From positions 339,455,375 through 339,519,374 of the forward strand of contig JAVHZZ010000003.1 in the NCBI GenBank assembly GCA_036250195.1: a DNA stretch of 64,000 bases. Reading direction: 5' to 3'. Positions within the stretch are counted from its first letter, which is position 1. The number at the start of each line of letters is the position of its first letter. Below the pieces are notes generated by a model, which saw only the letters and a list, made by a program, of their open reading frames with translations, searched no databases and was not told the origin of the DNA. This document shows, piece after piece, positions 21,479 to 62,640 of this stretch. The translations under genes and the position numbers were made by a program. The DNA comes from Mixophyes australis (taxonomy: Eukaryota > Chordata > Amphibia > Anura > Limnodynastidae).

Positions 21479-24473
21479 ATGGAGACCAAAAATTTGGAGG
21501 ATAAAGTAGGGAAAGATCAAGACCCACTTCCTCCTAATGCTGAAGCTGCTGCCACTAGTCATGACATAGACGATGAAATGCCATCAACGTCGTCTTCCAA
21601 GCCCGATGCCCAATCTCGTAGTACCGGGCATGTAAAATCCAAAAAGCCCAAGTTAAGAAAAAGTAGCAAAAAGAGAAACTTAAAATCATCTGAGGAGAAA
21701 CGTAAAGTTGCCAATATGCCATTTACGACACGGAGTGGCAAGGAACGGCTTAGGCCCTGGCCCGTGTTCATGACTAGTGGTTCAGCTTCACCCACGGATC
21801 TTAGCCCTCCTCCTCCTCCCCCCCCTACAAAAAATTGAAGAGAGTTATGCTGTCAGCAACAAAACAGCAAACAACTCTGCCTTCTAAAGAGAAATTATCA
21901 CAAATCCACAAGGCGAGTCCAAGGATGTTGGTGGTTGTCAAGCCTGACCTTCCCATCACTGTACGGGAAGAGGTGGCTCGGGAGGAGGCTATTGATGATG
22001 TAGCTGGCGCTGTGGATGAACTTGATGATGAGGATGGTGATGTGGTTATTGTAAATGAGGCACCAGGGGGGGAAACAGCTGATGTCCATGGGATGAAAAA
22101 GCCCATCGTCATGCCTGGTCAGAAGACCAAAAAATGCACCTCTTCGGTCTGGAGTTATTTTTATCCAAATCCAGACAACCAATGTATGGCCATATGTAGC
22201 TTATGTAAAGCTCAAATAAGCAGGGGTAAGGATCTTGCCCACCTAGGAACATCCTCCCTTATACATCACCTGAATAACCTTCATAGTTCAGTGGTTAGTT
22301 CAGGAACTGGGGCTAGGACCCTCATCGGTACAGGGACACCTAAATCCCGTGGTCCAGTTGGATACACACCAGCAACACCCTCCTCGTCAACTTCCTCCAC
22401 AATCTCCATCAGATTCAGTCCTGCAGCCCAAGTCAGCAGCCAGACTGAGTCCTCCTCAATACGGGATTCATCCGAGGAATCCTGCAGCGGTACGCCTACT
22501 ACTGCCACTGCTGCTGTTGCTGCTGTTAGTCGGTCATCTTCCCAGAGGGGAAGTCGTAAGACCGCTAAGTCTTTCACAAAACAATTGACCGTCCAACAGT
22601 CGTTTGCCATGACCACCAAATACGATAGTAGTCACCCTATTGCAAAGCGTATAACTGCGGCTGTAACTGCAATGTTGGTGTTAGACGTGCGGCCGGTGTC
22701 CGCCATCAGTGGAGTGGGATTTAGAGGGTTGATGGAGGTATTGTGTCCCCGGTACCAAATCCCGTCGAGATTCCACTTCACTAGGCAGGCGATACCAAAA
22801 ATGTACAGAGAAGTACGATCAAGTGTCCTCAGTGCTCTAAAAAATGCGGTTGTACCCACTGTCCACTTAACCACGGACATGTGGACAAGTGGTTCTGGGC
22901 AAACGAAGGACTATATGACTGTGACAGCCCACTGGGTAGATGCATCCCCTTCCGCAGCAACAGCAACAGCTGCATCAGTAGCAGCAACTACAAAATGGCG
23001 GCTCGTGCAAAGGCAGGCAACATTGTGTATTACAGGCTTTAATAAGAGGCACAACGCTGACAACATATTAGAGAAAATGAGGGAAATTATCTCCCAGTGG
23101 CTTACCCCACTTAGACTCTCATGGGGATTTGTGGTGGCAGACAATGCCAGTAACATTGTGCGGGCATTAAATATGGGCAATTTCCAGCACGTCCCATGTT
23201 TTGCCCACACCATTAATTTGGTGGTGCAGCATTACCTCAAGAGTGACAGGGGTGTGCAGGAGATGCTTGCGGTGGCGCGCAAAATTGCTGGACACTTTCG
23301 GCATTCAGCCAGTGCCTACCGCAGACTAGAGGCACATCAAAAAAGCATGAACCTGCCCTGCCATCACCTCAAACAAGAGGTTGTGACGCGCTGGAACTCC
23401 ACCCTCTATATGCTGCAGAGGATGGAGGAGCAGCAAAAGGCCATTCAGGCCTACACAGCCACCTACGACATAGGCAAAGGAGTGGGGATGCGCCTCAGTC
23501 AAGCGCAGTGGAGACTGATTTCCGTGTTGTGCAAGGTTCTGCAGCCATTTGAACTTGCCACACGAGAAGTCAGTTCCGACACTGCCAGCTTGAGTCAGGT
23601 CATTCCCCTGATCAGGCTGTTGCAGAAGCAGCTGGAGAAAGTGAGGGAGGAGCTGGTAAGCCATTGCGATTACACCAAGCATGTAGCTCTTGTGGATGTA
23701 GCCCTTCGTACGCTTTGCCAGGATCCGAGGGTGGTCACTCTTTTAAAGTCAGAGGAATACATTCTGGCCACCGTGCTCGATCCTCGGTTTAAAGCGTATG
23801 TTGTGTCTCTGTTTCCGGCGGACACAAGTCTACAGCGGTGCAAAGACCTGCTGGTCAGGAGATTGTCCTCTGAAGAGGACCGTGACATGCCAACAGCTCC
23901 ATCCTCATTTTCTTCCACATCTATGGCTGCGAGGAAAAAGCTCAGTTTTCCCAAAAGAGGCACTGGCGGGGATGCTGATAACATCTGGTCCGGACTGAAG
24001 GACCTGCCAACCATTGCAGACATGTCTACTGTCGCTGCATTGGATGCTGTCACAATAGAAAAAATTGTGGATGATTACTTTGCTGACACCATCCAAGTAG
24101 ACATGTCAGACAGTCCATATTGTTACTGGCAGGAAAAAAAGGCAGTTTGGAAGCCCCTGTACAAACTGGCTCTATTTTACCTGAGTGTCCCCCCTCCAGT
24201 GTGTACTCGGAAAGAGTTTTTAGTGCAGCGGGGAACCTGGTCAGTGAGCGGCGAAGGAGGTTGCTTCCTCAGAACGTTGAAAAAATGATGTTTATAAAAA
24301 TGAATAATCAATTCCTCAATGAAGTACAGCACTGCCCTCCAGATACTACAGAGGGACCTGTGGTTGTGGAGTCCAGCGGGGACGAATTGATAATGTGTGA
24401 TGAGGAGGAAGTACACACTGTAGGGGGAGAGGAATCAGAGGTTGAGGATGAGGACGACATCTTGCCTCAGTAG
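21479..24473 (+). pseudogene. hAT-family transposase with BED zinc finger (two apparent frameshifts)
   Basis: Cut-and-paste transposase of the Ac/Charlie/ZBED kind. Three successive frames join: 21479-21838 (N-terminal, acidic/Ser-Lys-rich), 21847-24288 (main body) and 24195-24473 (C-terminal). Numbering the main open frame from 21835, it holds a BED zinc finger (Cys121-x2-Cys124 ... His145-x4-His150), a first catalytic Asp in HLTTDMWTSG (about 348), a second in VVADNASN (about 436), the CFAHTINLVV motif just after, and VTRWNSTLYML. The final frame carries the hAT dimerisation signature SERVFSAAGNLVSERRRRLL and an acidic tail. Both frame changes fall at C runs: C8 at 21818-21825 and C6 at 24189-24194. 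Each is of the sense expected from loss of one base. If these are assembly errors or very recent changes, the protein of roughly 1,000 residues would be otherwise complete. Confidence 0.88.
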
Positions 24474-26099: not shown

Positions 26100-26685
26100 G
26101 CCCAGTGCCCACTCCTCTAGGCAGTCCAGGTACATTTATTGGTGCGAATCATAAAAGTTCAGGGTTTTTAATATATATTGTGGTGACCCACTCCTCTACG
26201 CAGTCCAGGTACATTTATTGGTGCGATTCATAAAAGTTCAGGGTTTTTAAGATATTGTGGTGACCCACTCCTCTACGCAGTCCAGGTACATTTATTGGTG
26301 CGATTCATAAAAGTTCTGGGTTTTTAAGATATTGTGGTGACCCACTCCTCTACGCAGTCCAGGTACATTTATTGGTGCGATTCATAAAAGTTCAGGGTTT
26401 TTAAGATATATTGTGGTGACCCACTCCTCTACGCAGTCCAGGTACATTTATTGGTGCGATTCATAAAAGTTCAGGGTTTTTAAGATATTGTGGTGACCCA
26501 CTCCTCTACGCAGTCCAGGTACATTTATTGGTGCGAATCATAAAAGTTCAGGGTTTTTAATATATATTGTGGTGACCCACTCCTCTACGCAGTCCAGGTA
26601 CATTTATTGGTGCGATTCATAAAAGTTCAGGGTTTTTAATATATATTGTGGTGACCCACTCCTCTACGCAGTCCAGAAAGATACC
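26100..26685. repeat. 77-79-bp tandem repeat, 8 copies, hAT right end
   Basis: CTCCTCTACGCAGTCCAGGT starts at 26112 (variant), 26191, 26268, 26345, 26424, 26501, 26580 and 26659; spacing alternates 77 and 79 bp through a TA-dinucleotide difference. The units are nearly identical, implying recent amplification. Confidence 0.92.
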
Positions 26686-26999: not shown

Positions 27000-29650
27000 A
27001 TAGTAACATAGTAACATAGTAACATAGTTGATGAGGTTGAAAAAAGACACCAGTCCATCAAGTTCAACCTATTTTGGATCTCCTGCGATCCTGCACTTAT
27101 ATTTGAAATTAATCCAGAGTAGGCAACCGCCCATCTGTTTCAATTTTGAAAATCCCCCCAGACTCAATATTGCAATCCAATTTTTACCATATATCCACTA
27201 CTATCCTTTATTTTAACTTAACGGTCGTATCCCTGGATACACCTTTCCGCTAAAAATTTGTCTAACCCTTTCTTAAACATATCTATTGAATCTGCCATCA
27301 CAACCTTCCCTGGCAATGAATTCCATATCTTGACTGCCCTTACTGTAAAGAACCCCTTCCTTTGCTGGTTGTGAAATTTCCTCTCCTCTAACCTTAGGGG
27401 ATGACCACGTGTCCTGTGTATGGTCCTTGGGGTAAAAAGTTCCCATGAAAGCTCTCCATATTGACCCCTAATGTATTTGTGCATAGTAATCATATCTCCC
27501 CTTAGACGCCTCTTTTCTAAAGTAAACATGCCTTAACTGGCTAACCTTTCCTCATAACTTAATGACTCCATACCCTTTATCAATTTTGTCGCCCTTCTCT
27601 GAACCCTTTCTAGTTCCAAATTATCTTTTTTATAGAGTGGTGCCCAGAACTGTACTGCATATTCAAGATGAGGTCTTACCAACGATTTATACAATGGCAA
27701 AATTACACTGTCTTCCCTTGCATCTATGCCCCTTTTTATGCATGCCAATACTTTATTTGCCTTTGCAGCTGCTGCTTGACATTGAGCACTATTGCTAAGT
27801 CTACTGTCTACGAGCACTCCCAAATCCTTTTCCATTATAGATTCTCCCAAATTAATTCCATTTAATTTATAGATTGCGTTCTTGTTTTTGATCCCTGAAT
27901 GCATAACCTTACATTTATCTGTGTTAAACCTCATATTTCATTTAGCCGCCCAATCCTCCAGTTTATTTAAGTCCCTCTGTAGAGAAGCTACATCTTGCTC
28001 TGATTTTATTACCTTACAGAGTTAAGTGTCATCTGCAAAAATAGAAACTTTACTCTCTAAACCATCACCAAGGTCATTAATGAATATATTAAAAAGGAGT
28101 GGCCCCAGCACGGAACCTTGAGGTACTCCACTTAAGACTTTTGACCAATTAGAAAATGTTCCATTTATCACAACTCTCTGTTCCCTATTCTCTAACCAGT
28201 TTTTGATCCAAGTACAAATTTTGATTTCTAGACCCAGTTCCCTTATTTTGTAAACCAACCTCTTGTGTGGCACTGTATCAAAGGCCTTTGCAAAATCTAA
28301 GTAGACCACATCTACTGTCCTGCCCTGGTCTAAGTTCCCACTAACTTCCTCATAGAAACTAATTAGATTAGTTTGACATGACCTATCCCTCACAAATCCA
28401 TGTTGATTCCCACTAATAATTGTATTGCATACCAAGTAATCCTGAATACTGTCCCTTAAAATACCTTCCAGTAGTTTCCCCACTATTGATGTCAGGCTTA
28501 CAGGTCTATAATTCTCTGATTGTGATCTCGTCCCCTTTTTAAACAACGGCACCACATCTGCTATTCGCCAATCCCTTGGTACTGAGCCTGATGAGATTGA
28601 ATCTCTGAAAATTAAGAATAGCGGTCTAGCTATTTCCGAGTTTAACTCCATAAGGACCCTTGGGTGTATGCCATCTGGACCTGGAGCTTTATTTATCTTA
28701 ATATTCTTCAGTCGCCTTTGGACTTCTTCCTCTGACAACCAAGTATTAATTAATGGCATGGTTTCATTTACATTTTTATGTATTACTCCTGCCATTTGTT
28801 CCTCTCTGGTAAATACTGAAGAAAAGAACGTGTTTAATATCTCTGCTTTTTCCTTAGTATCATTTATCAATTCACCCATCTCACTTCTTAGGGGTCCTAT
28901 ATTATCTTTTTTAATCCTTTTGCCATTTATATACTTAAAAAACTTTTTGGGATTTGTCTTAATTTCTTTTGCAACGTGCCTTTCATTTTCTAATTTAGCC
29001 AATCTAATTTCCTTTTTGCATGTTTTATTACATTCCTTGTACCTATGGAAGGACTCCTCTGACATTTCAGACATAAACAATTTAAATACACGCTTCTTCC
29101 TTTGCATTTCTTCCCTTACCTTTTTATTTAGCCACATTGGTTTAGACTTAATTCTTTTACATTTATTTCCCATAGGAATGAATTTATACGTGTAGGTTTC
29201 CAACAACATTTTAAAGACAGCCCACATTTCTTCCGTATTTTTTCCTTCAAAGGCTTTGTCCCAGTCTATGCTCTTTATAGACTCCTTTAGCATATTAAAA
29301 TTTGCCTTTTTAAAGTTTAAAGTCCTAGTTGATCCCTTATACTGTTGTTTCTGGAAACTAATTTCAAATGAGACCATATTATGATCACTGTTTCCCAAGT
29401 GCTCCTTTACTTGAATATTTGATATTACGTCTACATTGTTTGTTATTACTAGGTCCAGTATAGTCCGGTTCCTAGTTGGTTCCTCAACTAATTGGGACAT
29501 GTAATGGTCTTTTAGCGTGCTCAGAAACCTATTTCCCCTAGCTGTACCGCAGGTCTCAGTACTCCAATCAATGTCCGGATAATTAAAATCCCCCATAATT
29601 AAAATTTGACCTAGTTGGGATGTGCCCTTCTCCAGGTGTACCACATGAAG
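27000..29650 (-). mobile_element. CR1-clade LINE, 5'-truncated
   Basis: Minus-strand element. The 3' end is the 8-bp tail repeat (TATGTTAC)n at about 27000-27027, typical of CR1-like LINEs, preceded by a 3' untranslated region (27028-27217). Coding part 29644-27218. The 5' end is lost at about 29650, so ORF1 and most of the endonuclease are missing. CR1 elements are often 5'-truncated because reverse transcription starts at the 3' end. Confidence 0.9.
27218..29644 (-). pseudogene. CR1 ORF2: endonuclease tail, reverse transcriptase, C-terminal domain
   Basis: One continuous minus-strand frame of about 809 codons. First comes the end of the APE-type endonuclease ([22 protein letters not shown]). 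The reverse transcriptase follows with [59 protein letters not shown] and the catalytic FADDT. The CR1-specific C-terminal part (EKDLGVLVDSRL, LVRPHLEYAVQFW, VQRRATKLIKG, TLEKRRLRGD) completes it. Three stop codons lie in this same frame: directly after FADDT (near 28022), near 27936 and near 27531. There is no frameshift, so the copy is relatively young but cannot make a full protein. Only the N-terminal endonuclease half is absent. Confidence 0.9.
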
Positions 29651-30060
29651 GGGTCCCCATAGGGGATCTGCTTTCAGAATGGACTCTTGAATTCAGCACA
29701 TCTATTAACATCTGATGGTGGAGATGATCCTTATCCTCCAGAGACGCTCCAGCATAAAACCATGGAGCAATAAATATGAAACACACACAATGAGATGGAA
29801 TGGATTACCCGGGTCCAGTCTTCTCCCAATTATGAGTGTAACATTATTCCAGGTAGTCACAGGAGCTGCCGTGGGTCGTCCAACGCGTTTCGAATCCAGC
29901 AGGGACTCTTTATCAAGGTAACCTCTAAGGCAGTATTCGTTCCTTTTAAACTTGATCATCCCGATCACATGTTGTGTTCCACGAATCGGCGACTGAATAG
30001 AGGTGTCACATGATCGCCACCTTGAATAGTCCTAATGTATTCATACTCCCGATATGTCCG
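29651..30060. repeat. Possible Penelope-type terminal-repeat fragment
   Basis: CCAACGCGTTTCGAATCCAGCAGGGACTC...TTTATCAAGG (29880-29918) resembles the 'acgcgtttcg...' segments found at ends of Penelope-like elements and echoes 14880-14917. It lies against the 5' break of the CR1 copy. No coding sequence. Low-confidence assignment. Confidence 0.3.
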
Positions 30061-36539: not shown

Positions 36540-36855
36540 CAGGGGCGGATCCAGAGAATACTTCTACCCGGGACGATTTAGGGGGGGCGATTTAGGCCAC
36601 GCCCCCTTTTTGACATCTGAGGCTGCCGGCGGCTGCACACTATGCGCAGTTCCGTTCGGCAGTGACAGGTAAGGAGAGTGTGCTGCCCGGATGCTCTGAT
36701 TGTGTTTAAAACACAATCAGAGCGGCCGGGCTGCACACTGTCCCTACCTGTCACTGCCGAACGGAACTGCACATAGTGTGCAGCCGCCGGCAGCACAGCA
36801 GGCCCTGCTAGGGGGGGCGATCAACCTCGATCGCACCCCCCTGGATCCGCCGCTG
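36540..36855. mobile_element. hAT-type palindromic MITE, 316 bp
   Basis: Termini CAGGGGCGGATCCAG / CTGGATCCGCCGCTG. Flanks TATAGGAG (36532-36539) and CATAGGAG (36856-36863), an 8-bp duplication with one mismatch. The interior folds on itself around 36709 (GATTGTGTTTAAAACACAATC) with arms of more than 70 bp including TGTCACTGCCGAACGGAACTGC. Confidence 0.85.
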
Positions 36856-36883
36856 CATAGGAGAGATGGTCGTGAGAGCTACT

Positions 36884-37417
36884 ATAAAATGCATAGTGTT
36901 GATTACCCTTCAAATGCATTCCCCTCTTTGTTTAAAACATCCCCACAAATACAACCATAAAATAAAGACACGGACACCGACTTAAGATTGGAATAAAAAA
37001 GGTCCTTTTATTACATTATTATTATTTAAATTATATGTTTATTTTATTTTATTTTAATTATCTTTATTTTATTTTATCTATCAATACTATCAAAGCTATA
37101 AGCAATTTGGACCTTTTTCTTTATAGAGGTGGCGAAGAGCAAAGGCAGCCAGCTAAAACCAACATGAACCAATACGGTGGAAGATCGCCTCCTTTCCACC
37201 AACCCAGGTTAAGCCTTAACTATTGGCCGGTACTATACACTATAAATTAACTCAATACCCTCTGACTCAAACTGGTCAAGCCCTTTCTAGGCAAAAACCT
37301 GATACTCCTTACAAGAGTACCAACGAGTCTAATAACATTGAGGGAACCAAGGCTATATTGCCAACACATTAAGTACCGTATGTTTAACAACCTTATGACT
37401 GCCAAGCTCTCCTGCCA
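36884..37417 (-). repeat. Ngaro repeat B2 (outer, 3' end)
   Basis: 534 bp matching 37672-38205 at a constant offset of 788 bp. A 71-codon frame inside is present in both copies but is A/T-biased and probably not coding. Confidence 0.92.
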
Positions 37418-37485
37418 TTCAAAAACCTCGCTCCTCGTGACGAGGGAACATAATCAATAACCTGGAACCAGGGCGGGTGGGTGGG
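37418..37485. other. 68-bp spacer between Ngaro A2 and B2
   Basis: Present only once in the element. Contains the 13-bp palindrome CCTCGTGACGAGG (37433-37445) and a GGGCGGGTGGGTGGG run. Confidence 0.7.
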
Positions 37486-37673
37486 TCTCCGGATCCAGGA
37501 AACAGGAAGCTCTCTCCTTCTCACACTGCTTGATATATTCTTTCCACGACACTCCCACTTCCTTCCTAATTGACTGATTACACTACAGCCTTAAAACCCC
37601 CCAGTGGTGAGTAACATTATCAGCTCACAACACATGATTTTAAACTCCTTCAGCTAATGGCCTCTCTCATAAT
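37486..37673 (-). repeat. Ngaro repeat A2
   Basis: 188 bp identical by eye to 44369-44556. It joins B1 through the shared AT at 37672-37673. Confidence 0.92.
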
Positions 37674-38205
37674 AAAATGCATAGTGTTGATTACCCTTCA
37701 AATGCATTCCCCTCTTTGTTTAAAACATCCCCACAAATACAACCATAAAATAAAGACACGGACACCGACTTAAGATTGGAATAAAAAAGGTCCTTTTATT
37801 ACATTATTATTATTTAAATTATATGTTTATTTTATTTTATTTTAATTATCTTTATTTTATTTTATCTATCAATACTATCAAAGCTATAAGCAATTTGGAC
37901 CTTTTTCTTTATAGAGGTGGCGAAGAGCAAAGGCAGCCAGCTAAAACCAACATGAACCAATACGGTGGAAGATCGCCTCCTTTCCACCAACCCAGGTTAA
38001 GCCTTAACTATTGGCCGGTACTATACACTATAAATTAACTCAATACCCTCTGACTCAAACTGGTCAAGCCCTTTCTAGGCAAAAACCTGATACTCCTTAC
38101 AAGAGTACCAACGAGTCTAATAACATTGAGGGAACCAAGGCTATATTGCCAACACATTAAGTACCGTATGTTTAACAACCTTATGACTGCCAAGCTCTCC
38201 TGCCA
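37672..38205 (-). repeat. Ngaro repeat B1 (inner)
   Basis: Second copy of the 534-bp repeat, ending 12 bp from the hydrolase stop codon. Confidence 0.92.
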
Positions 38206-38217
38206 CAGCCGAGTGCC

Positions 38218-38871
38218 CTACGGACCACGCGGCCCGCCACCTAAAGAAAAAACTAAACCCTTGAGCTCTGAAAAAATCCTCTCTATGAACAAAACCGTTC
38301 CTACTGGCGACAAATGAACCCCATCTGCTCTAAAAAGATGCCTCTTGTCTACCGTTAACCCAGGATGACTAATGACAACCCCCTGCGTGCCCCTAATGTT
38401 CTGTCTTGCGTATCCATTTATCTTTTTAACCACCTTTATCAATGTGGCCGGGGGAATAGATGATCTCCAGGACAATCGAGGTATAATGTTGGACCAACAA
38501 ACCTTCATTGAAGGCCATCGGGCATGTATCTGTGCGAGATCTTCACGAATATTAATGATTAAATCAAGGGATTTGCCCTTTCCTACATCATTACCTCCCA
38601 AATGAATGACCACTATATCCGGGGTACCGTGCACTTCTATTTCTTCCCTTAACGTGGGAATCAAAGCCGCCCATACCATGCCCCTTTTACCCAACCAGCG
38701 GATGTCAACTGGGTGTGTGAAACCGGACCAACTCTCCGCTATCCTGTGCTTCGCAGCCCAAAAGATAAATGAATGACCCACGACCCATATCCTCGTCTTC
38801 TTCACCGAAAAACCTAAAACAAATTGAATAGTCTCATCAATCATAACCGTGTCTGAGACATGATCCACCAA
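38218..38871 (-). CDS. SGNH/GDSL-type hydrolase of the Ngaro element
   Basis: 217 codons as an open frame; the first ATG is at 38844 (residue 10). Motifs of the SGNH hydrolase superfamily: nucleophile Ser34 in VVGHSF (block I), a Gly near 61-64 (block II), GGND at 92-95 with Asn94 (block III), and DGVHLSP with Asp183 and His186 (block V). All catalytic residues are present. The family hydrolyses esters of lipids, sugars or acylated substrates; the substrate here is unknown. Hydrolase ORFs are known in Ngaro elements, and esterases also occur in some LINEs, where they are thought to aid membrane or RNP interactions. No signal peptide or membrane segment is seen. It is the last gene, about 520 bp after the recombinase, and ends just before repeat B1. 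It may be expressed by splicing or read-through. Confidence 0.85.
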   Translation of the reverse strand: MVDHVSDTVMIDETIQFVLGFSVKKTRIWVVGHSFIFWAAKHRIAESWSGFTHPVDIRWLGKRGMVWAALIPTLREEIEVHGTPDIVVIHLGGNDVGKGKSLDLIINIREDLAQIHARWPSMKVCWSNIIPRLSWRSSIPPATLIKVVKKINGYARQNIRGTQGVVISHPGLTVDKRHLFRADGVHLSPVGTVLFIERIFSELKGLVFSLGGGPRGP

Positions 38872-39387
38872 ACAACCGTGTTAACAAACGGAACTATATT
38901 ATTATTTTATCTTTATTTTTATTTAAATTATAACACTTCGCTGAGGTATCCCCTCCCTACCAGAGGGGCCACCCCAACTAAATTCGAATATTGGAAAGGG
39001 AAAAAAGATCCTATCTTTAGTTCTAAAGGCAATTGATTTTATCTATTTTGTCTCGTTTATTGACTGATTTATTTATTTATTTTTATCTATTTTGTCTCGC
39101 TAAACTGGAATTATCTTTATTCTTTAATTCTTAACAAAAGGAAATGGAAAATTGGTAACCCATATGTAGGTAAAAACCCCTTGTAAACCCCGGGAGGCAC
39201 ACACACTAATCAGGCCTTGCCAAGGAAAACAAGAGGAAAAATCCCTCCATGCCCCCGTTTAACACAGCGAGCAGCATAACCCTGGGTCACCAAGTGATAG
39301 ATGAGAAAAGAAGAGATGAAAGCGATAAAGAACCATGAGAGACATAAGGAGAGAACATGACCATATATATAAGAGCCCTTACAAGGC
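38872..39387. other. Non-coding gap between recombinase and hydrolase genes
   Basis: A/T-rich with T/A simple sequence (TTTATTTATTTATTTTTATC) at 38890-39120. Could contain an intron or leader for the hydrolase; no splice sites assigned. Confidence 0.4.
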
Positions 39388-40305
39388 TCATTTATCCGGC
39401 CGGATATATTTCTTATAGGCCTGTGACTTCCATCTCCCTAGCGCTTGAATCTCATTGACAGATGCCCCTCTGGCTGCAGCGGCGGTGGCCGCCCCTATTC
39501 TGAAGGAATGCGTGCCATATTCAACAGGGTTAAGGCCAACCTCCCCAAGGCCCCGTTTTAACAAAGCACTAAATTGAAATTTAGTTACTGGCGTATTGTC
39601 AGAATGACTTAACCACAAACCTTCCCCTGGGGGGCGAATTTTAGCGAATTGATTGGCCAGCTTGACCGGGCATATGGATGTTTCCTGCTGCTCCGTAATC
39701 GCTAACCAATGACCTCTGCCTAGCTGATCCGTTTTGGATTTGACTATCTTACAACGTATCACATTAGTTTGTAAAATAACATTTCTAAACAACAAAGCTC
39801 CCCCTATGTCGTTCTTAGATCTGGCTACCAACTCACTAACCCTAAAGGCTCCGTGATACGCCATTGAAAAAGCCAGCCCGAATAGCAAAGCCTCATAGTC
39901 ATCTGTAGCTAAATAACGCAATGCCGCAATCAATCTGGCTAAAATTTGCCCGTCAATCGGCCGGCGTGTGTCGCTAGTTATAGGCTGAATCCTGGCCCAA
40001 CCCTTCAGCGCTTTAGTTATGATAAATGACTTTGTGGGATCCTGCGCGCTGTCTAACTTAGCCGTGAATGAAATACCAGCCAAAAGGGACCCCATCTTTG
40101 CTCTAGAAACCCCTTCGTTGTAACACTTCCACATAAAACCCGTAATGGAGGGAATCTGACCTGAAGTGTCGCTGTTGCAAGATGCGCAGTAACTCAACCA
40201 ACGTTCCCATGCCCCTTGATAACATTTCCTAGTTGCCGGAGCCAGGGACGCTTCTGCTAGCCACCTTATCCCTAACGAACCATCTGCCAAACATAAGGAG
40301 GACAC
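39388..40305 (-). CDS. Tyrosine recombinase (Ngaro integrase)
   Basis: 305 codons. The phage-integrase fold is complete: an N-terminal core-binding region (SLAPATRKCYQGAWERWLSY, residues 21-40), catalytic Arg155 in GAFRVSEL, Lys in KSKTDQ (189-194), the His266-x2-Arg269 box in GTHSFRIGAA, LGRW (289-292) and the nucleophilic Tyr300 in YKKYIRPDK. The enzyme would integrate the circular DNA made by reverse transcription by strand exchange at a short core. There is no early ATG. The frame overlaps the end of the RT gene by 34 bp and lies -1 to it, so translation by -1 frameshift or reinitiation is likely (inference). No stop or gap: apparently functional. Confidence 0.93.
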   Translation of the reverse strand: MSSLCLADGSLGIRWLAEASLAPATRKCYQGAWERWLSYCASCNSDTSGQIPSITGFMWKCYNEGVSRAKMGSLLAGISFTAKLDSAQDPTKSFIITKALKGWARIQPITSDTRRPIDGQILARLIAALRYLATDDYEALLFGLAFSMAYHGAFRVSELVARSKNDIGGALLFRNVILQTNVIRCKIVKSKTDQLGRGHWLAITEQQETSICPVKLANQFAKIRPPGEGLWLSHSDNTPVTKFQFSALLKRGLGEVGLNPVEYGTHSFRIGAATAAAARGASVNEIQALGRWKSQAYKKYIRPDK

Positions 40306-42056
40306 TGTAAGCCAGTTAAACTTGCATGTGGAGCCAGAGATCTAAAACGCTGCCATTCAAAGCGGGAAAGAGCATCAGCTATTTGGTTGTCCACGCCAGG
40401 AACATGACGTGCCCGAAAGGTAATATCAGACTCTAAACACCTCAACACCAGGACACGGAGCAAATTAATCGCCGTGCGTGAGGAGGCGCTTTGCTTGTTA
40501 ATAGCCTGCACCACACCTAAGTTGTCGCACCAAAAAACCACGCTCCTGCCGCGCAACCGGACAGCCCACAGCTCCAAAGCCACAACGATGGGAAACAACT
40601 CTAACGTTAACAGATTTCGCACCAGGCCTTCGGATCTCCATGACTCCGGCCAGGGTGCCGCGCACCATTCCCCTTGAAAAAAGGCACCAAAACCTTTCGA
40701 GCCTGATGCGTCTGTATGCAAATCCAACGAAGTACTAGCTACTGCGTGTGCTGGCCATACTCTTACACCGTTGAAAGCCACTAGAAAACGACTCCATATG
40801 CCTAGATCCTCCCTAATCTCTGTTGACAAACGCACCTGGGAATGGGGACTACGCAAGCCTGACGTTGCTAGCTGAAGCTTCCTACAAAATACTCGGCCCA
40901 TGGGTATTACTCGGCAGGCAAAGTTGAAAGAACCTAGCAATGATTGAACTTTACGCAACGTACAAGATGGAACAGCCAAGACCTCTTGTATCAGGGATTG
41001 TAACTTAGCCACTTTATCAGATGGTAAACGACAACAACCTTCCACTGTGTCAATTTCGATACCTAAAAACCTCAGGCATGTGGCCGGGCCCTCCGTTTTG
41101 TCTGCAGCTACTGGCACCCCCATCACACGAAACAACGCCTGCGCAGCATACAGTGTTTCCTTACAACTAGGGGAATCAGCCGGACCTATAAACAGGAAGT
41201 CATCAAGATAATGCGCAATGCCGCGATGTCCCGTCCCCGCCCCGATACACCAATGGAGGAATGAACTAAACGCCTCAAAATATGCGCACGATACTGAACA
41301 GCCCATTGGCAGGCACCGATCCACATAGTAACGGTTCTGAATTCTAAAACCCATAAATTTAAAGGACTCTGGATGCAACGGAAGGAGGCGAAAGGCCGAT
41401 TCTATGTCCAACTTGGCCATAAGCGCACCATTGCCAAATTCTCTCACTAGTGCTAACGCATCATCAAAGGACTGGTACACCACTGAGCTAATTTGGGGGT
41501 CAATAGCATCATTAACTGACTTACCCGCCGGGTAAGATAAATGCTGGATTAACCTAAATTTTCCTGGGGCCTTCTTAGGTACTATTCCCACCGGGGAAAT
41601 GACTAAGTCTTGAATGGGAGGGGATGAAAAAGGACCCACCATGCGCCCAAGGCCTATCTCTTTACCCACTTTTTCCGCTAAGATGTCGGGGTGTGCATAC
41701 GCTGAGCGAAGGTTTCTGGCGGCAGTACCCGCCACCCCACTATTTATGGGAAGACGAAAACCAAGGCGAAAACCCTCCCTGAGAAAAGAGGCCTGCGCCG
41801 CATCTGGGTAAAGGGACAGCCATTTGCAGAGGATAGGGAATATAATGGGGGAGTCCGCTTTAGACAGAACCCCCCGCCCCTCCCCGTCCCCTACCGACTC
41901 CGACGGAGCCCCTAGGGCATTCTTTAAGGGGATGACTACCTCTACAATTGGTGCAGACGTGTCTATACCGGCACGAATCCCCCCTCCCGCATGAGGAATT
42001 GTTAAAGGCGAAACAACGGTTTTTGGAAGACTGGGGAGCACCTCGTCTCCCCCCAT
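40272..42056 (-). CDS. Reverse transcriptase / RNase H (Ngaro pol)
   Basis: 594 codons from an ATG at 42056. The RT domain includes GKFRLIQHLSYP, LDIESAFRLLPLHP (catalytic Asp), GCSVSCAYFEAF and the active-site YLDD at about residues 281-284 (DNA near 41205). The RNase H domain follows with LHTDASGSKGFG (first Asp), LLTLELFPIVVALELWA (Glu), FWCDNLGVVQAINK (Asp) and DNQIADALSRF (final Asp). The RT resembles DIRS/Ngaro enzymes rather than LTR-type pol: no protease, no DDE integrase. The 5' end overlaps gag by about 197 bp in another frame, and the 3' end overlaps the recombinase frame by 34 bp. No disruptions seen. It copies the element RNA into DNA, probably in a gag particle. Confidence 0.93.
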   Translation of the reverse strand: MGGDEVLPSLPKTVVSPLTIPHAGGGIRAGIDTSAPIVEVVIPLKNALGAPSESVGDGEGRGVLSKADSPIIFPILCKWLSLYPDAAQASFLREGFRLGFRLPINSGVAGTAARNLRSAYAHPDILAEKVGKEIGLGRMVGPFSSPPIQDLVISPVGIVPKKAPGKFRLIQHLSYPAGKSVNDAIDPQISSVVYQSFDDALALVREFGNGALMAKLDIESAFRLLPLHPESFKFMGFRIQNRYYVDRCLPMGCSVSCAYFEAFSSFLHWCIGAGTGHRGIAHYLDDFLFIGPADSPSCKETLYAAQALFRVMGVPVAADKTEGPATCLRFLGIEIDTVEGCCRLPSDKVAKLQSLIQEVLAVPSCTLRKVQSLLGSFNFACRVIPMGRVFCRKLQLATSGLRSPHSQVRLSTEIREDLGIWSRFLVAFNGVRVWPAHAVASTSLDLHTDASGSKGFGAFFQGEWCAAPWPESWRSEGLVRNLLTLELFPIVVALELWAVRLRGRSVVFWCDNLGVVQAINKQSASSRTAINLLRVLVLRCLESDITFRARHVPGVDNQIADALSRFEWQRFRSLAPHASLTGLQCPPYVWQMVR

Positions 42057-43641
42057 ACGGAAACCTGGTTAACTGAGGGGGACCGTACCCCATGCTCACC
42101 TCCCACACCTGGGCTCTATTCAATCTTAACCAGATCTCAACATCCTTAAAAGCCAGGGGCATATAAAGCTGACCGTGTACCTTCTCGCGGAACAGCTTAT
42201 CGTACAATCTCCAGGTACCTGGGCGTTCACAACTATGCATCTCATTAATAAGGTGAAGGTATTTCCATACGTCTATAAGTGCATCAGGTCTAGTTTCCAA
42301 ATAACAAGCTGAGAAAACGGAGTACCCTGTCAGCCAGTTCGAAAAGTTTCTGTAAGCATCCTCCCCGACTCCCCCTCGCATGCACGCAGCTGCCAACTCC
42401 TTTTGAGCGACCTTCGTCAGTTCAAATATATCAACATAATGACCTCTCTTGATCTTGTGCCTCATGCTGCGCCTAACTCCTATCAACAATGCCGTGTTTT
42501 CACATCTAACTAGGGGACCTCCAGCCGGAGTAGGAGACGCTGCCTCCCGCCGATCTACGTTCTTCCTCTTAGTTCCCCCGAAGTGGGTGTTAAGAATTTT
42601 AATGAGCTTGCGCTGACCCTGCCTGGGAGAAGATGGGGCAGACTCATCACTGGTGGTGGCTATGCTAGAACTGGACATGTAGGTGTTGCTTACAGTAGAA
42701 CCATCATACTCACCGACCGCTGCCTGCGCCTCCTGCAGGTCCAATCTCGCTCCGCCCTCGCCTTCCGAAACAACTTGGTGCGACCCCTGCTGCCCTGTCG
42801 AAGTCCCCGCTGCCTCTTCCTGTTGGAGCTGCGACCCTGCTCCGTCCACGCCCGTCTGCCCTGCGACTGAAGATGGCTGCATCTGTGAAACTGGATAAGA
42901 AGACATGTTAGCACGTGGGGAAGACAGGTTATGCAACTGTTGAGTAGGAACCCCATCCGGGGTAGGTACCGGGGGGGGAACCATGAGGTGACCTAGGAAA
43001 CCCGCTTGAGGGGGAACCCCTTGATCCCTACTTCCTTGTTGTCTAACCAGAGAAAACGAATCCGTACCAGAAACGCCAGAACTATTAAACAAGGAGGGTT
43101 GAGGATAAGAATGCACGTACTGACCCGCAAGGGCTGGATAAGGGGCCGACCACAAATTCCCCGCTTCCACTACAGACCCATAACCTCTAGGGGGGTACGG
43201 TAATGACCAAGAGGGGGCGGGTCCCTCCACCCTGTGTTGCTGGCCGACATGTTGCTGCAACGGCCACATCACGGCTGTGTCAGAGGCCAGTGATCGATTA
43301 GGAGCCGAACAAACAGAAGGGGACTGCTGATGGGCTGAACCCCCCATACCTAGGGGGAAACCCACCGGGGCTGGGCCCAGCAAACCAGGGGCCCTGTTGG
43401 AAGATATCCCCACCCCAGCCTGATGCAAGGAGTCCATGGAAAAAAGGAGGGGGGAGGATGAGGAGGGAGGAGGGGGGGGGGTCCCTGGCCTGGGAGGAGG
43501 ACAGGGAGGAAAGGGGGTTGAGAGGGAGAAGGGCGTGGGGGGTGGACAGGTGGCACGAATAATGGAGGGAATGAGGCAGGGACCCAGGAAACTGTTGCCC
43601 GGAAGAAACCAAGGAGGGGGACCCTGAAACCGCCCCCAGAC
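41860..43641 (-). CDS. Gag-like protein, C-terminal part with zinc fingers (Ngaro ORF1b)
   Basis: The frame is open from the codon after a stop at 43642-43644 down to 41860; the first ATG is at 43437. The N-terminal 240 residues are Gly/Pro/Ser/Gln-rich and low in complexity. A better-ordered part follows (TKRKNVDRREAASPT; MRHKIKRGHYVDIFELTKVA; NWLTGYSVFSACYLETRPDA), probably the capsid-like region. Near the C-terminus come two Cys-rich fingers: a CCCH-like CFAFNNSSCGRGDSCRYRH, then CTNCRGSHPLKEC. This layout matches the ORF1 of Ngaro/DIRS elements, thought to package the RNA. The upstream half lies in a different frame (43298-44203). Confidence 0.8.
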   Translation of the reverse strand, partial: VWGRFQGPPPWFLPGNSFLGPCLIPSIIRATCPPPTPFSLSTPFPPCPPPRPGTPPPPPSSSSPLLFSMDSLHQAGVGISSNRAPGLLGPAPVGFPLGMGGSAHQQSPSVCSAPNRSLASDTAVMWPLQQHVGQQHRVEGPAPSWSLPYPPRGYGSVVEAGNLWSAPYPALAGQYVHSYPQPSLFNSSGVSGTDSFSLVRQQGSRDQGVPPQAGFLGHLMVPPPVPTPDGVPTQQLHNLSSPRANMSSYPVSQMQPSSVAGQTGVDGAGSQLQQEEAAGTSTGQQGSHQVVSEGEGGARLDLQEAQAAVGEYDGSTVSNTYMSSSSIATTSDESAPSSPRQGQRKLIKILNTHFGGTKRKNVDRREAASPTPAGGPLVRCENTALLIGVRRSMRHKIKRGHYVDIFELTKVAQKELAAACMRGGVGEDAYRNFSNWLTGYSVFSACYLETRPDALIDVWKYLHLINEMHSCERPGTWRLYDKLFREKVHGQLYMPLAFKDVEIWLRLNRAQVWEVSMGYGPPQLTRFPYGGRRGAPQSSKNRCFAFNNSSCGRGDSCRYRHVCTNCRGSHPLKECPRGSVGVGRGRGGAGGSV

Positions 43642-44203
43642 CTAGTGACCCCGGAGAACAAACGGAATGAACAATAACAGGCCCCAGGCCTCTATAAGGG
43701 GACCCCTGGCCCTGCTCCACCGCAGGCAGGCCCAGGACCACACTACTGGCGACATGACCAGGAGGGATGGAGGGGGAGACAGAAGGCCCGACGGAGGAGG
43801 GAGGGGGGGCTGGAGCTGGCGGTGCCACGGAGGGAACCCCAGGCGCGGGGGAAGGAGATCCCCTGCCTCGGGTTCTGGCAGCCTGTCTAATGCGGTGGAC
43901 GGCTCCGGACACGAGCGGCCTCACCGCCCGCTCCGGAGCCCTAGACCTGCGTGCGCGACCCGGCCCCGCCCCGCGAGACACACTCGCGGCGGCCGAGTCA
44001 CGTGGGCGGCGGGCGGCTGCCCTCATGGAAATACTAATGCCTCCACCGGGAGGACCCGGGGGGCATACAGGCAACTGGGCAGTACGGGGGGGGCCAGGGG
44101 GAACTGCTGGGGCTGAAGTCGCAGCCAGCGACGACGGGGGGGGAGGGGACCCCGCAAACCTGGCGGGAATGGAGCGGGACCTTCTGGGGCGGGATGATGC
44201 CAT
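43298..44203 (-). CDS. Gag-like protein, N-terminal part (Ngaro ORF1a)
   Basis: Starts at ATG 44203 (MASSRPRRSRSIPARF), about 350 bp from the 5' end of the element, and runs 302 codons. Very rich in Pro, Ser, Ala, Gly and Arg; the basic N-terminus could bind nucleic acid. It overlaps ORF1b by about 340 bp in another frame. The overlap contains a G10 run on the plus strand (43472-43481). Moving from this frame to ORF1b needs a +1 shift, explained by an extra base in a homopolymer or by a programmed shift. The DNA is far more G/C-rich than the rest of the window. Function is inferred from position only. Confidence 0.6.
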   Translation of the reverse strand: MASSRPRRSRSIPARFAGSPPPPSSLAATSAPAVPPGPPRTAQLPVCPPGPPGGGISISMRAAARRPRDSAAASVSRGAGPGRARRSRAPERAVRPLVSGAVHRIRQAARTRGRGSPSPAPGVPSVAPPAPAPPPSSVGPSVSPSIPPGHVASSVVLGLPAVEQGQGSPYRGLGPVIVHSVCSPGSLGLGAVSGSPSLVSSGQQFPGSLPHSLHYSCHLSTPHALLPLNPLSSLSSSQARDPPPSSLLILPPPFFHGLLASGWGGDIFQQGPWFAGPSPGGFPPRYGGFSPSAVPFCLFGS

Positions 44204-44368
44204 GCTGGGGAAGGGAGGACAAAGTAAAGAAAAAGGGGGAAAAATAGACAGGAGAAGCAGACAAGCAGAAGGAGAGAACAGAGAGAGAGGTAGAAAAAGC
44301 AAAAACAAATCACAACAGATAAAACTACAAATACAGAGGAGCCAGATACTAAGCCTGATGCTGCAGCT

Positions 44369-44556
44369 TCTCCGGATCCAGGAAACAGGAAGCTCTCTCC
44401 TTCTCACACTGCTTGATATATTCTTTCCACGACACTCCCACTTCCTTCCTAATTGACTGATTACACTACAGCCTTAAAACCCCCCAGTGGTGAGTAACAT
44501 TATCAGCTCACAACACATGATTTTAAACTCCTTCAGCTAATGGCCTCTCTCATAAT
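44369..44556 (-). repeat. Ngaro repeat A1 (outer, 5' end)
   Basis: 188 bp identical by eye to 37486-37673; begins the element in its own orientation and should contain the promoter. Confidence 0.92.
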
Positions 44557-46515
44557 TCTACTAAAAACACCTTTTCCATAGGCACACCTGGGATAGGAGT
44601 GTTACATTTAAATGAACTTGATTACATTTAAATTGACAAGAACATGACAAGCTACCAGGGTTTAGATTGAGATTGGCACAAGAGGTAGAAGAGGATATAA
44701 GAATAAATATGGCAGAATGTCGAAACTAGCTAGAACAAATAATTACTTTGGGGAAGTAAAAATAATTGGCACAATGAGGAAATGGTGATAGACAATTTTA
44801 AAAGAAATAAGAGATTGTGTAACATCCAACACAACATTGTAATATAATACTGCAGATTATTTCACAATCCCAAGTAAAACAAAAGTATTCAGTGACATGT
44901 GCCGAACTGCAGTCTTAATGCCAGCAATATATTGGTGTAATAAGACCCATTACAGACTCCTGACCGTCTAGCAGTGACAAAGAAGAATAGAATGCAAAGA
45001 AAGAGTCTAAAGTCAGCTAAGGTAAATCTGAATCAAATAATGAATTTTCAGATTCAAGAGCAGAAGGCTCAGACAAAAGCAACTTAGGTGCTTGTAGAGG
45101 CCTCCGATGACCACTTGTGACTCCAGCTGAAGGATTGGGACAGGCTATTCCGTGCTCAGATGCTGGTACAAGGCAGAGTGATGCTCCCCTTAGAACACAT
45201 TTTTTTCAAAAACAAATTAACCTGACTCCCTCTTACTGTTGTTTTCTAACTCCCTCTGTCTCTGTGTTCTCTGTGTTGGTGGTTATGGTGATTGTGAGGA
45301 AGGAACAGTGGGGTGTTTAGACAAAGGACCAGGGTAAACAAATAGAGTCTGGGGACTACATCCTGACGGACACTGGGATGGAAAGGAGCTCAGCCTCCAC
45401 CAAGGTCAGGCATTGATAAAGTGGAGGTGTCAGACGTGACTCCTCTGTCATGACTCAATTGCATATCTGGGTACATCCAGCACAAATGTGCTAGATGGCC
45501 ACTAGCCACCAGGTGGCTCTCTGACTTGCACTGTCACAATAAGGGATTACAAATGAGGCAAGTGACAATCTTAGAAGCATGCACCATTCCACACGTGGTA
45601 GTTTAAATTATCCCATGAAAGACAAGATGTCTGGGGATCACTACTAATACCATGCTTCACCCTGAGGCTCTAGGACAGTATCTGCAACGCTGGTCCTGAG
45701 ACCTACATGTACTCATCCAAGAGAAGGATGGAGATCTGGCCCTTTATGTACCTCTGCAACATCTGTTAGCATCTCTAATACCTATGACTAAGCCTCATCA
45801 CTGTGAAACACAGTCTCACATTTTAGAAAAAGCTCCTGTTCAATACCCACAACACCATTCACTCTTCATTTAAAATGTCTGTCTTGCCTTTTTACTATCT
45901 CTTTTTTCCTTGCTTTCTCCGTTTCGCTCCCTCCTTTTCATATTATTTCTCTCTCTCTTTCTCTACTTCTCTCTAAATCTCTTCTCTTCCACAGCAGCAG
46001 TTAGTATGATTGAAAATTTTATAGTGCGATCTGTGTTTTGCTAAATGGAATGAGATATGTCATAATGTTAAACAGAGCCCATAAGAGAAAATTCCTGACA
46101 GAGCAACAATAATGGGGCATTCGGCAATAAACTGTGTTGGAAAAATTCTGCTTTAGAAATATGCAAAATGTCAAGCTCACATATGGAGTGAGGTGAATTA
46201 CCCACATAACAGTTTTGAAAATATGTAATCTCATATGCGTATACATAATGGATGGTCATTTTTTTTTAAAGGCAAGGAATAGTCCCACATATTTTGTGAT
46301 TGCCCCTGATGAAGTGTTCATCTCTATCCTTATTTTCCCACATCATTCAGTTACATGACCATTGTTTCACCTTGACATTTTTAAGAAGCGTAATCACTAA
46401 AACGTTCTTTTAAATACTGTGCGAATTTCATCTTTATGGAATGTTACAATTATTTCAGTTGGTAAACTTACATAGTTTGGGTTACTTTTTTGTCTTGTTT
46501 TGTTTACTAATGGGT
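44557..46515. other. No gene recognised
   Basis: Unique-looking sequence. 45890-46000 is a CT-rich simple-sequence stretch (CTCTCTCTTTCTCTACTTC). Short frames carry no domain. Confidence 0.4.
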
Positions 46516-61838: not shown

Positions 61839-62640
61839 TGCAGTCATGACCAAAAGTTTTGCCAAATGTTGCTATGGTATACTGAAGTAAAATTACAAGC
61901 ATTTCATAAGTGTCAAAGGCTTTTATTGACAGTTACATTACATTTATGCAAAGAATCACTATTTGCATTGTTGACCTTTCTTTTTGAAGACCTCTGCAAT
62001 TAGCCCTGGAATGTTGTCAATCAACTTCTGGCCCACATACTGACTGATGGCCGCCCATTCTTGCCTAATCAATGCTTGGAGTTTGTCAGATTTGTGGATT
62101 TTTGTTTGTCCACCCGCATTTTTGAAGATTGACCACAAGTTCTTAATGGAATGAAGGTCTGGGGAGTTTCCTAGCCCTGGACCCAAAATTTTGATGTTTT
62201 GATCCCCAAGCCATTTAGTTATCACTTTTGCCTTATGGCAAGGTGCTCCATCATGCTGGAAAAGGCATTGTTCGTCACCAAACTGTTCTTGGATGGTTGG
62301 GAGAAGTTGCTCTTGGAGGATGTTCTGGTACCATTCTTTATTCATGGCTGTGTTCTCATGCAAAATTGTGACAACCACTGTTTTAGGAAGACGGGTATTA
62401 TTGCTTACAACAGCATTGATAGCTTTAGAAAGATTAGCCCATTTTCCAGTATTTGCCTTTGATCCGAGCAGAGTTGATAGCCAATCGCAATGCAATGTGA
62501 AGAAAACAGCAAATGTTGGGAACCAGATGTGGAGATGACCCAAGCTTGCCCTGCATCCTTCCACTGCTTTCTTTCCCAAATTTCCCCACCATCCTGTTTG
62601 TAAACTAATGCTGAGCTATTTACTGACGGATAAACTGATA
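61839..62640 (-). mobile_element. Tc1/mariner element, one end only
   Basis: The right end of the element, in its own orientation, lies at about 61839 (TGCAGTCATGACCAAAAGTTTTG, next to a TA). The opposite terminus and the N-terminal part of the transposase are missing beyond about 62640. Confidence 0.75.
61959..62579 (-). pseudogene. Tc1/mariner transposase, C-terminal half, catalytically broken
   Basis: 206 codons. The DDE catalytic domain is recognisable: KTVVVTILHENTAMNKEWYQ, then LFQHDGAPCHKAKVITKW with the second catalytic Asp at 110, and NSPDLHSIKNLW. Tc1-family proteins have PIENLW there; the third catalytic acid is replaced by Lys (position 146). The N-terminal helix-turn-helix DNA-binding region and the first Asp are not present; the first 45 codons do not match the family and may be out of frame. 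The tail (IPGLIAEVFKKKGQ) is normal for the family. It cannot be active. Confidence 0.88.

What the first reader, a model, noticed from the sequence alone, without database searches (positions are those of the whole stretch)
36884..44556. Apparently intact, recent Ngaro-like retrotransposon with identical split direct repeats
Both repeat pairs (188 bp and 534 bp) look identical by eye. RT, RNase H, recombinase and hydrolase catalytic residues are all present, and only gag shows a frame change. AT lies at both outer ends and at the B1-A2 junction, fitting circle integration at an AT core. It may be a currently mobile element.
Basis: partly seen in the sequence, partly recalled or inferred. Interest (0 to 1): 0.75.

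Follow-up and report, generated by a model that had tools for sequence, protein, structure and literature searches.

The report
Young frog retrotransposon with spliced genes
This is a very recently copied mobile element of the known Ngaro kind in what looks like a frog genome; it seems to make two of its enzymes by RNA splicing, as retroviruses do, and it carries a conserved folded RNA that may help its unspliced RNA to be used.

Summary
The 534-bp and 188-bp repeat pairs are identical, and the order A1-gag-RT/RNaseH-YR-SGNH hydrolase-B1-A2-B2 (minus strand) fits an amphibian Ngaro-like element. It is young: 19 of 20 fetched stretches of the same genome hold full-length copies 99.5-100% identical, one differing at none of 7,671 aligned bases. 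Insertion leaves no target duplication: the joined flanks of the window insertion match through in 39 other places. The window copy's gag frame is interrupted, as in 11 of 20 copies; 9 of 20 have one open gag frame.

(1) YR and SGNH appear to be made from alternatively spliced mRNAs that share one donor in gag. Mixophyes gene models show Gag-N::YR and Gag-N::SGNH isoforms. Their junctions fall on GT and AG sites in the window, in phase, and these sites persist in two diverged families. (2) A 144-nt non-coding RNA between YR and SGNH keeps one fold in both families, with compensatory changes, and matches no Rfam family. I read it, less surely, as an export/retention element of the kind intron-retaining retroelements need. 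No transcript data were available; all splicing evidence is genomic or from predicted gene models.

The parts
36885..44555 (-). Ngaro-like element proper (7,671 bp), inserted without target-site duplication
   Evidence: Ends defined by 20 insertions; empty sites
44369..44556 (-). A1 repeat (188 bp), outermost base probably from the target
   Evidence: Identical to A2
42714..43641 (-). Gag N-terminal coding segment upstream of the splice donor (the part that the fusion proteins would share; the frame is interrupted in the 5' part of gag in this copy)
   Evidence: tblastn of P0136/P0138; frames
42708..42714 (-). Splice donor G^GTGAGT in gag (last exon base 42714)
   Evidence: GT kept in 6 of 7 family I copies
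41860..43641 (-). gag main ORF (593 codons stop to stop), with a cysteine-rich C-terminal part
40272..42068 (-). RT/RNase H ORF (598 codons), +1 frame relative to gag, overlapping it
   Evidence: frame relation worked out from the coordinates
40283..40312 (-). YR splice acceptor ...TTATGTTTGGCAG^AT (first exon base 40283), inside the RT C-terminal codons
   Evidence: AG kept in 15 of 15 copies of two families
39388..40283 (-). Tyrosine recombinase exon (298 residues from the junction)
   Evidence: 97% identical to residues 307-604 of Mixophyes isoform X1, P0138
39152..39295 (-). Conserved structured non-coding RNA element (144 nt)
38813..38842 (-). SGNH splice acceptor ...TTTGTTTTAG^GT (first exon base 38813) with a conserved 30-nt island upstream
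38218..38813 (-). SGNH (GDSL) hydrolase exon
37672..38205 (-). B1 repeat (534 bp)
37486..37673 (-). A2 repeat (188 bp)
37418..37485 (-). 68-bp spacer between A2 and B2
36884..37417 (-). B2 repeat (534 bp), outermost base probably from the target

Best explanation
A very young, multi-copy Ngaro-like YR retrotransposon in what is probably an anuran genome close to Mixophyes. SHOWN: split repeats, near-identical copies, insertion with no target duplication, RT and YR under purifying selection, conserved splice-site pairs matching predicted isoforms, and a covarying RNA fold. INFERRED: the full-length RNA serves as genome and as mRNA for Gag and, through a +1 shift, RT/RNase H. The same pre-mRNA is alternatively spliced from one donor in gag to two acceptors, giving Gag-N::YR and Gag-N::SGNH proteins; this explains how YR, which mostly lacks an upstream start codon, and SGNH are expressed. 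The conserved RNA between YR and SGNH lets unspliced and singly spliced RNA escape splicing or nuclear retention, like a retroviral transport element. cDNA is closed to a circle whose CATTTTA|TTATGAG junction is recombined by YR into A|T-type sites.
For: Repeats. Copies. Empty sites: (39 of 40 scored matches span the junction, 31 of the 39 with no net length change). Splicing: the Mixophyes models LOC142099473 isoform X1 (P0138, YR) and X3 (P0136, SGNH) share Gag-N (99% over 310 residues) and split at one point. A pair with a different gag, P0135 (YR) and P0125 (SGNH), does the same. P0125 maps in this genome as residues 1-254 in gag and 253-367 in SGNH, about 3.7 kb apart in the two same-contig pairs that I measured. 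The window has G^GTGAGT, GGCAG^AT and TTTTAG^GT exactly at the junctions, in one codon phase. Family I: donor GT 6/7, YR AG 7/7, SGNH AG 7/7; family II: donor GT 8/8, YR AG 8/8, SGNH AG 7/8. Synonymous divergence is 0.58-1.32 for the four diverged family I copies. Between the upstream stop and the YR junction 13 of 15 copies have no in-frame ATG. RNA: 97.8% of cells paired against 37.5-53.4% when slid, 48 double-changed cells against 0-12.
Against: No RNA reads were seen; the isoforms are predicted models. By a splice-site matrix recalled from memory the donor ranks 4 of 529 GT and the acceptors 14 (YR) and 11 (SGNH) of 533 AG in the window. Three other acceptor-like sites are as conserved as the SGNH one, two more equal the YR one, and two weaker donor-like sites are kept in 6 of 6 copies. 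The YR acceptor lies in RT codons, so part of its conservation may be coding. No spliced retrocopy was found for family I (0 matches for YR, 0 for SGNH), against 184 for the unspliced YR acceptor. 6 of 14 SGNH copies, the window among them, have an in-frame ATG upstream of the junction. RNA: the number of covarying pairs alone is not above shuffles (146/500) and there are fewer further pair types than in any shuffle (500/500); 8 of the 9 double-changed pairs differ only between the two families. The transport role rests on position and analogy only.
Confidence: 0.75

Rival explanations
1. An ordinary Ngaro-like element whose overlapping ORFs are all translated from one full-length RNA by frameshifting, reinitiation or internal initiation; the splice models are annotation artefacts.
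For: A paper on fungal Ngaro elements describes YR as in frame or frameshifted with RT, and 'splic' and 'intron' do not occur in its main text (PMC3783388); RT overlaps gag in the +1 frame; the window SGNH frame has an ATG 10 codons upstream of the junction.
Against: YR has a stop 1-24 codons upstream and no in-frame ATG between it and the junction in 13 of 15 copies, its first later ATG being at codon 39-50 where one was found; donor and acceptors are conserved in two families with different gag-N; the 30 nt before the SGNH acceptor are 85% conserved where the three preceding 30-nt bins are 14-49% (mean of four copies).
Confidence: 0.15
2. The repeats are identical because of gene conversion or assembly collapse, and the element is old.
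For: Nearby repeats can be homogenised; only one assembly was available (inference, no call).
Against: A1 and A2 are nearly 7 kb apart and identical in 20 of 20 copies; the 19 other copies differ from the window's by 0-37 changes in 7.67 kb and have different flanks.
Confidence: 0.03
3. The conserved RNA acts as an intronic splicing regulator, packaging signal or translation element for YR or SGNH rather than an export element.
For: It lies inside the SGNH intron and downstream of the YR stop in the YR and full-length RNAs; no Rfam match names a function.
Against: Nothing here separates these roles.
Confidence: 0.5

Closest known systems
[quoted passage not shown] passages read)
   Same: Four ORFs (gag, RT/RH, YR, SGNH hydrolase), and in DIRS-53_XT identical split direct repeats A1...B1 A2 B2; recent amplification reported.
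   Different: Repeat lengths differ (A 236, B 152 bp there; A 188, B 534 bp here). 'intron' and 'splic' do not occur in that paper's main text; it describes overlapping ORFs.
Cafeteria Ngaro elements (PMC8547959; passages read)
   Same: A1-[ORFs]-B1A2B2 repeats, RT/RH and YR.
   Different: 'hydrolase' does not occur in the main text, nor does 'splic'.
Retroviral spliced genes and constitutive transport elements (PMC11379458, passages; Cer1 in PMC10309623, abstract and outline)
   Same: Unspliced RNA must leave the nucleus although it holds splice sites; spliced RNAs make other proteins.
   Different: Here the spliced products would carry a Gag-derived N-terminus and be the recombinase and a hydrolase; transport activity is untested.
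Zebrafish ZfL2-1 ORF1p esterase domain, PDB 4c1b
   Same: SGNH esterase carried by a vertebrate retrotransposon; weak sequence match (E 0.048) and fold match.
   Different: A non-LTR element (recalled); the hydrolase sits in its ORF1, not in a spliced 3' ORF. The fold alignment is poor (rmsd about 20).

Membership tests
Ngaro-like YR retrotransposon | Split direct repeats A1 ... B1 A2 B2 with identical pairs | tested here: met
   order as described in PMC9210276; a 68-bp spacer lies between A2 and B2
Ngaro-like YR retrotransposon | Reverse transcriptase with RNase H | tested here: met
   RVT_1 1.2e-12; RVT_3 0.0042, below its curated cut-off
Ngaro-like YR retrotransposon | Tyrosine recombinase | tested here: met
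   Phage_integrase 28.5 bits over a 27.1-bit cut-off
Ngaro-like YR retrotransposon | No methyltransferase (DIRS-like) domain, no DDE integrase, no aspartic protease | tested here: met
   No such Pfam match at E <= 0.1 in the five ORFs scanned
Ngaro-like YR retrotransposon | Amphibian members: SGNH hydrolase ORF after YR | tested here: met
   Lipase_GDSL_2 at 32.2 bits is just under its 32.9-bit cut-off
Ngaro-like YR retrotransposon | RT groups with named Ngaro elements in a tree | not tested
   No named Ngaro reference sequence was at hand; of 1158 RT matches the 120 listed carry no Ngaro name
Ngaro-like YR retrotransposon | Integration without target-site duplication | tested here: met
Constitutive transport element (function) | Promotes export of intron-containing RNA | not testable with these tools
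   Needs a reporter assay
Constitutive transport element (function) | Match to a described RNA family | tested here: not met
   No Rfam 15 match at E <= 5 in 36800-44700

The most novel reading that the evidence does not exclude
Frog Ngaro elements have, independently of retroviruses, an env-like expression plan. One donor in gag feeds alternative splices that put the same Gag N-terminal tag on the recombinase and on an SGNH esterase. In a group without a protease and without a Gag-Pol-integrase polyprotein, the tag could deliver both to the particle. A new class of conserved structured RNA keeps enough RNA unspliced and exported.
Probability: 0.4. Interest if true: 0.8.

Novelty: new variant of a known kind. 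Interest (0 to 1): 0.62.

Why it matters
How YR retrotransposons express a recombinase that has no start codon of its own and no polyprotein partner, and what their hydrolase does, look open: the hydrolase's function is called unproven or unknown in PMC9210276 and PMC6681497 (passages). A common splice donor with two acceptors gives a directly testable answer, and a young family in a frog is a good place to test it. A structured RNA linked to intron retention, in a group that the passages read here describe without spliced genes, would be a further case, beside retroviruses and Cer1, of retroelements meeting the same RNA-export problem.

Tried and rejected
Rejected: the gag frame change as native architecture, because 9 of 20 copies have one open frame. 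Rejected: a strict AT core. Rejected: the conserved stretch downstream of YR as a missed sense ORF, because every sense frame of the 15 aligned rows holds a stop. Considered and dropped: splicing into RT from the gag donor; of three strong acceptor-like sites considered (window 41803, 41778, 41185), the two in the right phase are either lost in diverged copies or deep inside RT (scores; the phase was worked out by hand).

Led nowhere: search for spliced retrocopies of family I (none; the family II patterns did not complete). The chimeric N-terminus search (10 hits, 7992 candidates scored) gave no Gag for the Rana, Ranitomeya or Bombina hydrolase models, so splicing in those frogs is untested. 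The first 41 residues of the Ranitomeya model also occur in a piggyBac-type model (P0139), so that N-terminus may not be Gag at all. A third, more distant family in this genome was not reached because the search did not complete, nor was the YR protein search. The two works that I would most expect to mention introns in vertebrate Ngaro elements (Goodwin and Poulter 2004; Poulter and Butler 2015; recalled) are not held, so 'not in print' is only as strong as searches of an open-access library, whose listings I did not open beyond the papers named.
Full report
WHAT IS THERE. The finding's repeats are exact: 36884-37417 equals 37672-38205 over 534 bases and 37486-37673 equals 44369-44556 over 188 bases, with no mismatch. 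On the minus strand the order is A1, gag, RT/RNase H, YR, SGNH hydrolase, B1, A2, a 68-bp spacer, B2. Pfam supports RVT_1 (1.2e-12), Phage_integrase (1.5e-6) and Lipase_GDSL_2 (1.8e-7); RVT_3 is weak (0.0042). The hydrolase model (mean pLDDT 87.9) matches SGNH-type esterases and platelet-activating-factor acetylhydrolases in the PDB. This is the anatomy described for amphibian Ngaro-like elements, hydrolase included (PMC9210276, passages read).

AGE AND COPIES. Its relatives point to a frog near Mixophyes: the YR is 97% identical and the hydrolase 88-95% identical to Mixophyes fleayi models. A 717-bp query from B2-A2 has 77 scored matches, 42 of them over 712 bases or more and 8 (the window included) exact over all 717; only 40 of 727 candidates were scored, so this is a lower bound. 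Of 20 stretches fetched, 19 hold full-length copies at 99.5-100% identity; the other (L013) has the B2-A2 end but no match over 800 bp. Among those 19 and the window, A1 and A2 are identical in 20 of 20, B1 and B2 in 19 of 20. One copy has no difference from the window element and twelve others have 1-3 substitutions. At 3.1e-9 substitutions per site per year (the Xenopus rate used in PMC9210276), zero differences in 722 repeat bases bound the insertion at roughly 0.7 million years (95%, my arithmetic), barring gene conversion.

STATE OF THE FRAMES. In these 20 copies the 598-codon RT frame is open in 19, the 317-codon YR frame in 18 and the 220-codon SGNH frame in 20. One open gag frame across both parts is present in 9, and gag is interrupted in 11, six of which (the window included) share one pattern. 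That near-identical copies share an interrupted gag suggests that they were mobilised with help from other copies; a sequencing error cannot be excluded.

INTEGRATION. Comparing 20 insertions, the constant element is TTATGAG...CATTTTA; the next base outside is A in 17 and T in 3 on one side, and T in 10, A in 8 and G in 2 on the other. The B1-A2 junction reads CATTTTATTATGAG, the two ends joined with nothing between. Flanks of L020, L022 and L024, which lie in tandemly repeated DNA (L020 and L024 in the same kind of repeat), and of L025, whose empty homologue at 85.7% identity lies in this window at 26996-26678, rejoin without duplication or loss. The joined flanks of the window insertion gave 40 scored matches (of 87 candidates); one is the window's own right flank and 39 span the junction at 81-91% identity, 31 of them with no net length change. 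Target bases show a weak motif: C in 11, A in 16, G or T in 16, A in 14 and A in 17 of 20 at positions -5 to -1; nominal p for the commonest base is 7e-6 at -4 and 7e-7 at -1, of 20 positions looked at. These facts fit circle integration by YR; the circle itself was not seen.

SPLICED EXPRESSION. The search with the hydrolase returned a Mixophyes model (P0121) in which a Gag N-terminal segment is followed directly by the hydrolase, although the two lie about 3.9 kb apart in the window. A further search returned two isoforms of one Mixophyes locus: X1, Gag-N followed by YR (P0138), and X3, Gag-N followed by SGNH (P0136), identical at 99% over their first 310 residues. A second Mixophyes pair with a different gag, P0135 and P0125, shows the same split: the same N-terminus (90% over 255 residues) continues into YR or into SGNH. 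In the window the junctions fall on GTCG^GTGAGTATG in gag, TTTGGCAG^AT before YR and TTTTAG^GT before SGNH, all in the same codon phase.

CONSERVATION OF THE SPLICE SITES. Fifteen copies were compared: the window and six more copies of its wider family (L029-L034), and eight copies of the second family (L035-L042). The donor GT is kept in 6 of 7 and 8 of 8, the YR acceptor in 7 of 7 and 8 of 8, the SGNH acceptor in 7 of 7 and 7 of 8. Four of the family I copies are 75-79% identical to the window, with synonymous divergence 0.90-1.32 in RT and 0.58-1.09 in YR, and dN/dS 0.05-0.16. The YR frame has a stop 1-24 codons before the junction and no in-frame ATG between them in 13 of 15 copies; the first later ATG, where one was found before a stop, lies at codon 39-50. 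The 30 nt before the SGNH acceptor are 85% conserved against 14-49% in the three preceding 30-nt bins. Controls are mixed. Of 16 donor-like and 16 acceptor-like sites tested in family I, the gag donor keeps a strong score in 5 of 6 copies while the three higher-scoring window donors keep it in 2 of 6, but two weaker donors keep theirs in 6 of 6; three other acceptor-like sites equal the SGNH acceptor (6 of 6), and two equal the YR acceptor (5 of 6). Patterns for spliced, intron-free retrocopies of family I found none against 184 for the unspliced YR acceptor; the patterns for family II did not complete. No RNA was available, so splicing is strongly indicated, not shown.

A STRUCTURED RNA. Between the YR stop and the SGNH acceptor, the non-coding stretch 39152-39295 is conserved within and between the two families (mean identity 0.92 among five of seven family I rows, 0.95 among the eight family II rows, 0.685 between), with stops in every sense frame of all 15 rows. 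Each of five rows folded alone gives a long branched hairpin (z -2.5 to -4.2). The consensus has 37 pairs, 9 of them with changes on both sides. 97.8% of cells pair, against 37.5-53.4% when partners are slid; 48 cells change on both sides against 0-12 when slid and 20.9 on average when shuffled; but the number of such pairs is not unusual (146 of 500 shuffles) and further pair types are fewer than in all shuffles. Eight of the nine double changes separate the two families and may each be one event; one pair (columns 62-116) changes on both sides within family I, and 12 pairs show one-sided, pair-keeping changes within a family. Rfam has no match at E up to 5. The model built from these rows finds the element once in each of 11 of 12 sources searched and not in L013; five of the eleven are rows it was built from and the rest are near-identical copies, so this shows position, not reach. 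It lies in the SGNH intron and in the 3' part of the full-length and YR RNAs. Unspliced retroelement RNA must overcome nuclear retention (PMC10309623, abstract), and structured transport elements do this in some retroviruses (PMC11379458, passages). A similar role here is a hypothesis; splicing control or packaging are not excluded.

NOVELTY. The element is a new member of a known kind. The common-donor splicing of YR and SGNH, and the RNA fold, did not appear in the titles and abstract beginnings listed by seven searches of the open-access library, nor in the passages read of six YR-retrotransposon papers; the two key works are not held, so an earlier report cannot be excluded.

Noticed in passing
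Family I versus Mixophyes P0121, P0136, P0137, P0138: YR is 97% and SGNH 88-95% identical to the Mixophyes relatives but Gag-N only 45-51%: either very fast evolution of Gag-N or exchange of the 5' part between families.
   Followed up: partly
window 37418-37485: A 68-bp unique spacer separates A2 from B2; it lies inside the 42 genome matches of 712 bp or more, so it belongs to the element.
   Followed up: partly
G000:C12:83276391 and 83277179; C2:405850885 and 405851670: Two places carry an extra B-A unit about 785-788 bp apart, as if a repeat unit had been duplicated or a circle with an extra junction had integrated.
   Followed up: no
window 26996-26678: Repeat in the window that is the empty-site homologue (85.7%) of the L025 insertion target.
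   Followed up: partly
window 36622-36794: Inverted repeat (86-nt arms, 93% complementary) next to the element, looking like a non-autonomous DNA transposon; the kind is recalled, not tested.
   Followed up: no
window 21805-24288: 827-codon open frame with a BED zinc finger (2.2e-10), probably a hAT-type transposase (recalled).
   Followed up: no
window 28022-29692 and 61959-62615: LINE-type endonuclease/RT frame (RVT_1 4.2e-26) and a weak DDE_3 frame (0.00067, below cut-off) of a DNA transposon.
   Followed up: no
window 11265-12421 and 26108-26676: Large tandem arrays with periods of 90 and 79 bp.
   Followed up: no
G000: The SGNH query has 8,058 first-look candidates, of which 150 were scored, at 83-100% identity: hydrolase-bearing relatives may be very numerous here (most candidates are unconfirmed).
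   Followed up: partly
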